Of a stretch of DNA of 54,360 bases, positions 897 through 1,767 are shown piece by piece; position 1 is the stretch's first letter; each line of letters begins with the position of its first letter. The stretch covers positions 1 through 54,360 of the forward strand of contig JAHHHW010000097.1 of assembly GCA_019359115.1 (NCBI GenBank). The letters run 5' to 3'. The notes under the pieces were generated by a model, which was not told where the DNA came from, did not search any database, and was given only the letters and a program-made list of their open reading frames with translations. The translations under genes and the position numbers were made by a program. This DNA comes from Pelatocladus maniniholoensis HA4357-MV3 (lineage in GTDB: Bacteria; Cyanobacteriota; Cyanobacteriia; Cyanobacteriales; Nostocaceae).

Positions 897-1403
897 ATGC
901 CCAAGCGACAAAAACAAAACTCTGACCACGCACACAAACATAATACTCCTACTATAGATAATGAGGTAATTTCTCAGCAATTAGAAGCTTTATTAACTCC
1001 AGCTATTTTTGCTCAACAAAAATATTACAAACAGTTAGGATTACGAGATAGAATTCTGAATTTATCTTTCATGGTAGCAGCAGTATTAACGCTATTGTGG
1101 AGGCAAGTTCCTGGAGTACAAGAATTAAATCGTCTTTTGGCAAGAGAAGGTTTCTTATGGTGTCCTGTTACTAAAGTTGCTCAACAATCACTATCAGAAA
1201 GATTTTTGGTATTTCCTGCTGAATTATTTGAGCGGGTCTTTAAAGATTTACTACCTCAGTTACAACTAAATTGGCAGCAAAGACTGAGGCGACCACTACC
1301 AGATAGTGTTAAGTTTGCACTGCATAATTTTGATAGAATTTGGATAGCTGATGTTGCAAAATTTGATTTAAGAGTAGGAACTGCTAACTTGCTTGTTGAT
1401 TAA
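897..1403 (+). pseudogene. IS4-type transposase, N-terminal fragment
   Basis: The ATG at 897 starts MPKRQKQNSDHAHKH. It is followed by stretches typical of a cyanobacterial IS4-like transposase: EALLTPAIFAQQKYYKQLG, LRDRILNLSFMVAAVLTLLW and RFLVFPAELFERVFKDLLP. Homology ends near RIWIAD (about 1350), where the first catalytic aspartate of the DDE domain would lie. The remaining residues (VAKFDLRVGTANLLVD) look unrelated and run antisense over the end of the next gene. The element is thus cut at its catalytic domain and cannot be active. No terminal inverted repeats were found around it. Confidence 0.75.
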
Positions 1404-1572
1404 CTCGTCTTAGCATTTCTGCATCTGCTTCCTCATCCGTCGTGCAAAGCACACCAGGACGATCGCTTAACCTATCCATATATTTGTGAAATGCCTCTGT
1501 ATCCTGTGGATGAGTTCTAACATAGGCTAGCAACTCTTTATCCGACATCTGCTCAAAATTCATCTGGGTCAT
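1384..1572 (-). CDS. DUF6887-type small protein (possible toxin-antitoxin partner)
   Basis: This is a 62-residue acidic protein, MTQMNFEQMSDKELLAYVRT followed by HPQDTEAFHKYMDRLSDRPG. It matches my recollection of DUF6887, a tiny cyanobacterial family headed by NFE-M-S/N-x-EL-AYV. It has no signal peptide or membrane segment. Its ATG at 1570-1572 overlaps the TGA of the upstream DUF6888-type gene (ATGA), so the two are translationally coupled. The stop lies inside the 3' end of the IS4 relic on the other strand, so the last few residues may have been altered by that junction. Function is unknown; the layout resembles a toxin-antitoxin operon. Confidence 0.72.
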   Translation of the reverse strand: MTQMNFEQMSDKELLAYVRTHPQDTEAFHKYMDRLSDRPGVLCTTDEEADAEMLRRVNQQAS

Positions 1573-1745
1573 TTAATAAATACCTCCCCATTTGGAAATA
1601 TTTCTACTTCAATTGTGTCGCCAATTAAAACAAAAAGTCTTTTGTTTCGTTCGTCTAAACGAACCACGTTAATTGGCTGCATCAAGTTACTTGCTGCTAC
1701 ACATCTGCGGTAAAACGCTTTTAACTGTGCTGATGTTGGCTCCAT
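1569..1745 (-). CDS. DUF6888-type small protein (first gene of an overlapping pair)
   Basis: The 58-residue protein starts MEPTSAQLKAFYRRCVAASN, continues LMQPINVVRLDERNKRLFVL and ends IGDTIEVEIFPNGEVFIK. The pattern Q-L...C-x-x-x-S-x-L-x-x-P-I-N-x-V-R-x-D-E-R, then a beta-rich end with I-x-I-F-P-N-G, fits DUF6888, the usual partner of DUF6887. The stop TGA overlaps the start ATG of the next gene by the ATGA arrangement. Upstream on the minus strand is only prophage debris, so this two-gene unit looks self-contained. The family call rests on memory; the overlap and reading frame are read directly. Confidence 0.7.
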   Translation of the reverse strand: MEPTSAQLKAFYRRCVAASNLMQPINVVRLDERNKRLFVLIGDTIEVEIFPNGEVFIK

Positions 1746-1767
1746 CAAACTTCTCTTTTATTCTCGC

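What the first reader, a model, noticed from the sequence alone, without database searches (positions are those of the whole stretch)
1569..1745. DUF6888-DUF6887 pair: a compact, overlapping two-gene unit in a mobile-DNA context
Two tiny genes (58 and 62 codons) overlap by ATGA, both intact, while everything around them is broken. The combination of small size, coupling and persistence among mobile relics is what toxin-antitoxin or similar addiction modules show. To my knowledge the families have no assigned function. The first gene is easy to miss because of its size.
Basis: partly seen in the sequence, partly recalled or inferred. Interest (0 to 1): 0.75.

Follow-up and report, generated by a model that had tools for sequence, protein, structure and literature searches.

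The report
Toxin-antitoxin-like mini gene pair
Two tiny overlapping cyanobacterial genes behave as one self-contained unit that looks like a toxin-antitoxin pair, and in many relatives the first gene seems to start at the rare codon AUU, which would keep its product scarce beside its strongly translated partner.

Summary
The pair is real: DUF6888 (1569-1745, minus, 58 aa) and DUF6887 (1384-1572, minus, 62 aa) overlap by ATGA. Seen only in cyanobacteria, it is a multi-copy two-gene unit. In 13 chosen genomes all 66 DUF6888 matches kept for the count had DUF6887 downstream; 21 of 86 DUF6887 stood alone. Named loci that align mostly share the unit, not the flanks (734 of 749).

New here: of 145 anchored DUF6888 genes, 57 have ATT/ATC/ATA, mostly behind a strong Shine-Dalgarno (SD), and no ATG, GTG or TTG start; coding conservation follows it. 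ATG-started DUF6888 genes mostly lack an SD, as does the window's; DUF6887 has a strong one. Both should keep the first product scarcer. Four loci add a RelE/ParE-type gene after a longer DUF6887 protein. I read DUF6887 as antitoxin-like and DUF6888 as candidate toxin (0.5).

The parts
1569..1745 (-). DUF6888 gene (gene A), 58 aa, ATG start, candidate toxin
   Evidence: ORF; Pfam PF21828 83.8 bits, cut-off 27
1384..1572 (-). DUF6887 gene (gene B), 62 aa, candidate antitoxin
   Evidence: ORF; Pfam PF21826 63.4 bits, cut-off 24.2
1569..1572 (-). ATGA overlap: B start codon and A stop codon
   Evidence: sequence; the same 4-base overlap in 42 of 75 distinct pairs by a script that set the window's own pair to a later ATG
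1582..1589 (-). Shine-Dalgarno of gene B (GGGGAGGT) inside the last codons of gene A
   Evidence: sequence; duplex energy -12.1 kcal/mol with the 16S tail (16S tail recalled, not taken from this genome)
1746..1765 (-). 20 nt before the gene A start: no evident Shine-Dalgarno
   Evidence: duplex energy -2.9 kcal/mol, equal to the median of 33 ATG-started DUF6888 genes, whose shuffles average -3.1

Best explanation
The pair is a self-contained two-gene unit that works like a type II toxin-antitoxin system of reversed gene order. DUF6888 (first gene) is the candidate toxin, target unknown. DUF6887 (second gene) is the candidate antitoxin, which would bind and neutralise it. Shown by sequence comparison: DUF6888 goes with DUF6887, the genes overlap or nearly so, both are under purifying selection, similarity between loci mostly ends at the unit, the first gene mostly has weak-looking initiation signals (AUU/AUC/AUA behind a strong Shine-Dalgarno, or AUG with little or none) and the second strong ones. 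Inferred: that these signals keep antitoxin above toxin, that the two proteins bind, and that DUF6888 is toxic.
For: 66 of 66 DUF6888 matches kept for the count in 13 genomes (two of them halves of one frameshifted copy) have DUF6887 within 360 nt downstream, 62 of them 8-20 nt away, while 21 of 86 DUF6887 are solitary. 71 of 386 genomes hold DUF6888 and all 71 are among the 79 with DUF6887. 158 of 160 distinct DUF6888 reading frames are followed by DUF6887 (part of these loci were fetched by DUF6887). Distances between A and B correlate, r=0.82, against at most 0.106 in 500 permutations. Up to 15 matches in a genome. Four loci read A-B-toxin, with a longer DUF6887 protein overlapping an 83-aa gene by 4, 4, 4 and 1 bases; the two scanned match ParE_toxin PF05016 at 40.9 and 30.2 bits, cut-off 23, so DUF6887 sits in the antitoxin position. 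One solitary, truncated DUF6887 follows a PemK/MazF-type gene. Initiation: 57 of 145 DUF6888 genes have ATT/ATC/ATA and no ATG/GTG/TTG; their Shine-Dalgarno energy is -7.8 against -2.9 for the 33 ATG genes and -10.5 for 143 DUF6887 genes; by 80% clusters -7.0 (22) against -2.9 (23), p=3e-5, one mixed cluster in both. Plasmid-borne copies: 6 records, in 4 of them downstream of a small gene that reads as RHH (3, by eye) or is annotated helix-turn-helix (1).
Against: No similarity of DUF6888 to any toxin: no PDB hit better than E=0.53, nothing in PADLOC, NCBIfam or PHROGs for the window protein and one relative, no profile similarity to the ParE-type protein. Of six DUF6888 sites dropped before the count (five below the cut-off, one made of two fragments) only one has a DUF6887 match beside it, so remnants without partner exist. 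Solitary DUF6887 genes often follow unrelated genes (Uma2, DUF2726, TerD/TerF, a succinate dehydrogenase/fumarate reductase-like gene by eye), so DUF6887 may do something other than neutralise toxins. In decaying pairs a broken A with a whole B (6) does not significantly outnumber the reverse (2), p=0.29. DUF6888 is kept in the A-B-ParE loci, which a third-component reading also predicts. No structure, interaction or toxicity test was possible.
Confidence: 0.5

Rival explanations
1. DUF6887 is a general antitoxin-type adaptor and DUF6888 is its regulator, chaperone or co-repressor, not a toxin. A-B would be the regulatory half of three-component modules whose toxin gene has been lost or lies elsewhere.
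For: Four A-B-toxin loci keep DUF6888 upstream, in the order regulator-antitoxin-toxin; DUF6887 has other neighbours; DUF6888 resembles no toxin.
Against: No toxin family is among the 25 families listed (of 121) for the nearest downstream genes of 59 pairs; weak-looking DUF6888 initiation and its hardly ever being alone fit a harmful protein better than a regulator.
Confidence: 0.22
2. The pair is a small two-subunit complex with an accessory cellular role (for example in stress or nuclease control) and no toxicity; uneven translation only sets its stoichiometry.
For: Many copies sit beside housekeeping-type genes; solitary DUF6887 genes lie at like positions in different genera (upstream of the same 457-aa gene in L114 and L115, downstream of the same 575-aa sdhA/frdA-like gene in L116 and L129).
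Against: No fixed neighbourhood, patchy presence (71 of 386), up to 15 matches in a genome and similarity ending at the unit are unusual for a housekeeping complex.
Confidence: 0.2
3. The roles are reversed: DUF6887 is the toxin and DUF6888 the antitoxin.
For: Gene order antitoxin-toxin is the commoner order in known type II systems (recalled).
Against: 21 of 86 DUF6887 are solitary and none of 66 DUF6888 is; DUF6887 holds the antitoxin position before ParE-type genes; the presumed antitoxin would be the gene with the weaker start signals.
Confidence: 0.05

Closest known systems
Type II toxin-antitoxin systems of reversed order (HigBA, HicAB, MqsRA; recalled)
   Same: Two small overlapping genes, first gene candidate toxin, Shine-Dalgarno of the second inside the first, multi-copy, patchy, also on plasmids
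   Different: Neither protein was related to a known toxin or antitoxin in the Pfam, PADLOC, NCBIfam or PDB sequence searches; many first genes start at AUU/AUC/AUA
RelBE/ParDE modules
   Same: In four loci a longer DUF6887 protein precedes a RelE/ParE-type gene with a 4-base or 1-base overlap (two of four scanned with Pfam)
   Different: No such gene was found next to the window's pair, and DUF6888 stands in front in all four
E. coli infC (IF3) with its AUU start codon
   Same: AUU start linked to negative feedback by IF3 (title of a reference seen). The window's own genome has an IF3 paralogue with Shine-Dalgarno plus ATC/ATT and no normal start before its domain
   Different: infC regulates itself; DUF6888 is not IF3 by Pfam

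Membership tests
Pfam DUF6888 / DUF6887 | Score over the family's gathering cut-off | tested here: met
   83.8 against 27 and 63.4 against 24.2 bits
Type II toxin-antitoxin system | Two small adjacent co-oriented genes, inseparable on the toxin side | tested here: met
   66 of 66 matches and 71 of 71 genomes; 158 of 160; five of six dropped weak or fragmentary DUF6888 sites have no DUF6887 match near
Type II toxin-antitoxin system | First protein is toxic alone and rescued by the second | not testable with these tools
   needs expression
Type II toxin-antitoxin system | The two proteins form a complex | not testable with these tools
   structure prediction interrupted, then switched off; only A-B correlation of distances, r=0.82, which linkage alone can give
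Type II toxin-antitoxin system | Homology to a known toxin or antitoxin family | tested here: not met
Type II toxin-antitoxin system | Antitoxin made in excess of toxin | tested here: inconclusive
   initiation signals point that way; protein ratios not measured
Type II toxin-antitoxin system | Autoregulated promoter with an operator | tested here: inconclusive
   extended -10 box in 33% of AUU-type genes (3% in shuffles, n=89) but 6% of ATG genes (2% in shuffles, n=33); upstream sequences were only looked over by eye for an operator
RelBE/ParDE | RelE/ParE-type toxin gene next to the antitoxin | tested here: not met
   no Pfam match in the ORFs tested beside the window's pair; seen at 4 other loci

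The most novel reading that the evidence does not exclude
DUF6888 translation is gated by initiation factor IF3. AUU, AUC and AUA are starts that IF3 discriminates against (recalled), so the first protein would be made only when IF3 is short relative to ribosomes or initiation fidelity falls. The unit would then be a sentinel of the translation-initiation machinery, kept as portable cassettes across cyanobacteria and easily overlooked because annotation rarely accepts AUU starts.
Probability: 0.17. Interest if true: 0.85.

Novelty: new variant of a known kind. Interest (0 to 1): 0.62.

Why it matters
If right, this is an undescribed toxin-antitoxin-like family (no held paper names DUF6888 or DUF6887) and the largest set of related genes with AUU-type starts that I know of (recalled, not searched exhaustively). 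It gives a testable case that near-cognate starts set protein ratios inside an operon, and it means that gene finders limited to ATG/GTG/TTG would miss or misplace many of these small genes.

Tried and rejected
Chance ORFs: rejected (Pfam scores; third-position bias). Phage origin of the family: the window's DUF6888 has no match in 50,697 phage records, and a DUF6888 alignment found none in viral contigs (18 pattern matches, none a relative). A conserved third gene: the nearest upstream genes of 63 pairs and downstream genes of 59 pairs share no family in more than 3 members (I gave 63 of the 75 and 59 of the 79 neighbours found, leaving out by eye near-duplicates and some others; only the 25 commonest of 139 and of 121 families are listed). 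An upstream or downstream normal start for the AUU-type genes: 38 of 57 have an in-frame stop within 6 codons; 47 of 57 have no ATG in any frame within 24 nt before the motif, which argues in those against frameshifting from an overlapping ATG; 3 of 57 have no ATG/GTG/TTG in the whole gene, and in 47 of 57 the first one lies after the eleven codons that already show coding conservation. Independence: on a tree of 145 pairs the start class (124 rows AUU-type or ATG) changes 10 times, but co-variation of Shine-Dalgarno strength by independent pairs was not significant (4 supported pairs); the cluster-level comparison is. DUF6888 as a shrunken RelE: no profile similarity. Homology of A and B to each other: none. 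Circular plasmid test of own contig C164: no exact terminal overlap. Asymmetric decay: not significant.

Full report
What is there. The window lies on contig C97 of a 6.70 Mb, 167-contig genome, probably a cyanobacterium, to judge from the family's distribution (inference). On the minus strand, 1569-1745 encodes a 58-aa DUF6888 protein and 1384-1572 a 62-aa DUF6887 protein; the stop of the first and the start of the second share ATGA. Both score far over Pfam's cut-offs. Neither name occurs in any held paper. The own genome holds 7 DUF6888 matches, two of them halves of one frameshifted copy, and 7 DUF6887 matches, one of which, on C84, has no DUF6888 beside it.

Pairing. In a survey of 386 genomes of the phylum, 71 hold DUF6888 and 79 hold DUF6887; all 71 are among the 79. 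I then chose 13 genomes, mostly of few contigs; 12 hold DUF6888. All 66 DUF6888 matches kept for the count have DUF6887 downstream on the same strand: 62 with 8-20 nt between profile ends, one overlapping by 15, three at 59, 93 and 360 nt. 21 of 86 DUF6887 have no DUF6888. I dropped 7 of 73 DUF6888 rows and 3 of 89 DUF6887 rows: five DUF6888 rows and the three DUF6887 rows are below the cut-off, and two DUF6888 rows are fragments of one G143 site. Of these six DUF6888 sites only one (G174) has a DUF6887 match beside it, so weak or fragmentary DUF6888 remnants without partner exist. Over all loci then fetched, 158 of 160 distinct DUF6888 frames have DUF6887 downstream; the exceptions are a frameshifted copy running into DUF6887 (L178) and a truncated one near the end of its stretch (L174). 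Some of these loci were fetched by DUF6887, so and the loci, fetched by DUF6888, are the fairer samples. One search found 161 relatives in 84,980 species; the 80 kept all have cyanobacterial titles. The 14 control genomes gave no match over the cut-off.

A portable unit. The nearest upstream genes of 63 pairs and downstream genes of 59 pairs share no family in more than 3 members. Among 56 named loci with at least 1.5 kb on both sides, 749 locus pairs align across DUF6888, and in 734 the alignment ends within 300 nt of the unit on both sides. 143 of the 749 are at least 80% identical over at least 330 nt; since only 15 of 749 share more flank, at least 128 of these 143 share the unit only. Argonema (L142) and Microcoleus (L149) are 89% identical from the codon before the PT motif of DUF6888 to the stop of DUF6887 and not beyond. 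How it moves, I did not find. Six plasmid records carry pairs; in four a small gene upstream reads as ribbon-helix-helix (three, by eye) or is annotated helix-turn-helix (one), and two have a CyRepA1 replication gene within 4 kb. The own contig C164 with two pairs has an actin-like ALP_N protein, a ParA-like protein and an integrase, and an ORF that reads like a large terminase (by eye). No phage record and no viral contig matched. So mobile DNA is one home of the family; that it is the rule is not shown.

An AUU-type start for the first gene. DUF6888 proteins begin with a conserved PT..Q motif, which anchors the start. 13 of 158 genes lack it, many of them truncated, and were left out. Of 145, by one rule: 33 have ATG within 4 codons, 12 GTG/TTG, 7 other (six with ATG five or six codons up, one, L190, with no start at all), and 93 have ATT/ATC/ATA just before the motif; 2 of these 93 are really GTG starts, leaving 91. 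In 57 of the 91 there is no ATG, GTG or TTG within 12 codons or up to the in-frame stop; 19 have ATT or ATC followed by TTG; in the other 15 a GTG, TTG or ATG lies 3-12 codons up. In the 57 the chosen codon is ATT 48, ATC 6, ATA 3; the eleven codons from the motif on differ mostly at third positions (901, 954, 3255 over 645 sequence pairs), the 9 nt at -18 to -10 do not (776, 1086, 1022); 3 of 57 have no normal start codon anywhere in the gene. 47 of 57 have no ATG in any frame in the 24 nt before the motif. DUF6887 as control: 143 of 158 ATG, 15 GTG/TTG only, none without.

Two routes to weak initiation. Shine-Dalgarno duplex energy over 20 nt: the 57 genes -7.8 median (shuffled mean -4.3), GGAG or GAGG in 88%, in nearly all of these 5-9 nt before the codon; 33 ATG-started DUF6888 -2.9 (shuffled -3.1), GGAG or GAGG in 18%, a third at -5 or better; 143 DUF6887 -10.5, 86% (p=1.5e-8 between the two DUF6888 classes, relatedness ignored). 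At 80% clusters: -7.0 for 22 AUU-type and -2.9 for 23 ATG clusters (one mixed cluster in both), p=3e-5; 16 of 55 clusters hold a gene without any normal start. On a tree of 145 pairs the class changes 10 times; a test by independent pairs was not significant. The window is of the ATG kind: -2.9 for DUF6888, -12.1 for DUF6887. The DUF6887 Shine-Dalgarno lies in the last codons of DUF6888, as TGG AGG (Trp-Arg) in many relatives and as GGG GAG GTA (Gly-Glu-Val) in the window: the DNA motif stays while the peptide differs. ATT and ATA starts are reported from peptides in Nostoc PCC 7120, eight revised genes and, for ATA, two novel ones (PMC8557916, passages seen). The own genome's second IF3 gene has a like layout. 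Cyanobacteria initiate many genes without Shine-Dalgarno sites (recalled), so ATG without one need not be weak.

What it does. DUF6887 is tolerated alone and, in four loci, a longer form precedes a RelE/ParE-type gene with a 4- or 1-base overlap (two of four scanned); one solitary, truncated DUF6887 follows a PemK/MazF-type gene. DUF6888 over the cut-off was not found alone and its start signals look weaker. In E. coli type II systems translational regulation is the commonest way to keep antitoxin above toxin (PMC5535158, abstract seen; passages, did not bear on start codons of toxins). Hence DUF6888 as candidate toxin and DUF6887 as candidate antitoxin. Weak points: DUF6888 resembles nothing known; solitary DUF6887 follow several non-toxin genes; decay asymmetry is not significant; fold and complex prediction did not run.

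Novelty. I searched for AUU starts with toxins, in cyanobacteria and in toxin-antitoxin operons and for small overlapping toxin-antitoxin genes in cyanobacteria; I saw the listings, passages of two papers and one outline with abstract, and no gene family of this kind. Subscription papers are mostly not held.

Noticed in passing
G000:C11:54668-54871 (-), locus L221: The window's genome has a second, divergent IF3 (infC) gene whose reading frame shows no ATG/GTG/TTG before the IF3 domain, only a Shine-Dalgarno-like GAGAGG followed by ATC/ATT codons.
   Followed up: partly
L222:3853-4543 (own contig C107); L241, L242, L244: Three-gene arrangement DUF6888 - long DUF6887 - RelE/ParE-type toxin gene (two of four scanned with Pfam).
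   Followed up: partly
L226-L229: DUF6887 reading frames of 182-188 codons with a shared C-terminal extension of some 120 residues; the one scanned (L227) matched only DUF6887 in Pfam.
   Followed up: no
L116 and L129; L114 and L115: Solitary DUF6887 downstream of a 575-aa sdhA/frdA-like gene in two genera, and upstream of the same 457-aa gene in two genera (gene names by eye).
   Followed up: no
own contig C164 (24.9 kb; L223, L246): Plasmid- or phage-plasmid-like contig with ParA-like, actin-like, integrase and terminase-like genes and two DUF6888-DUF6887 pairs.
   Followed up: partly
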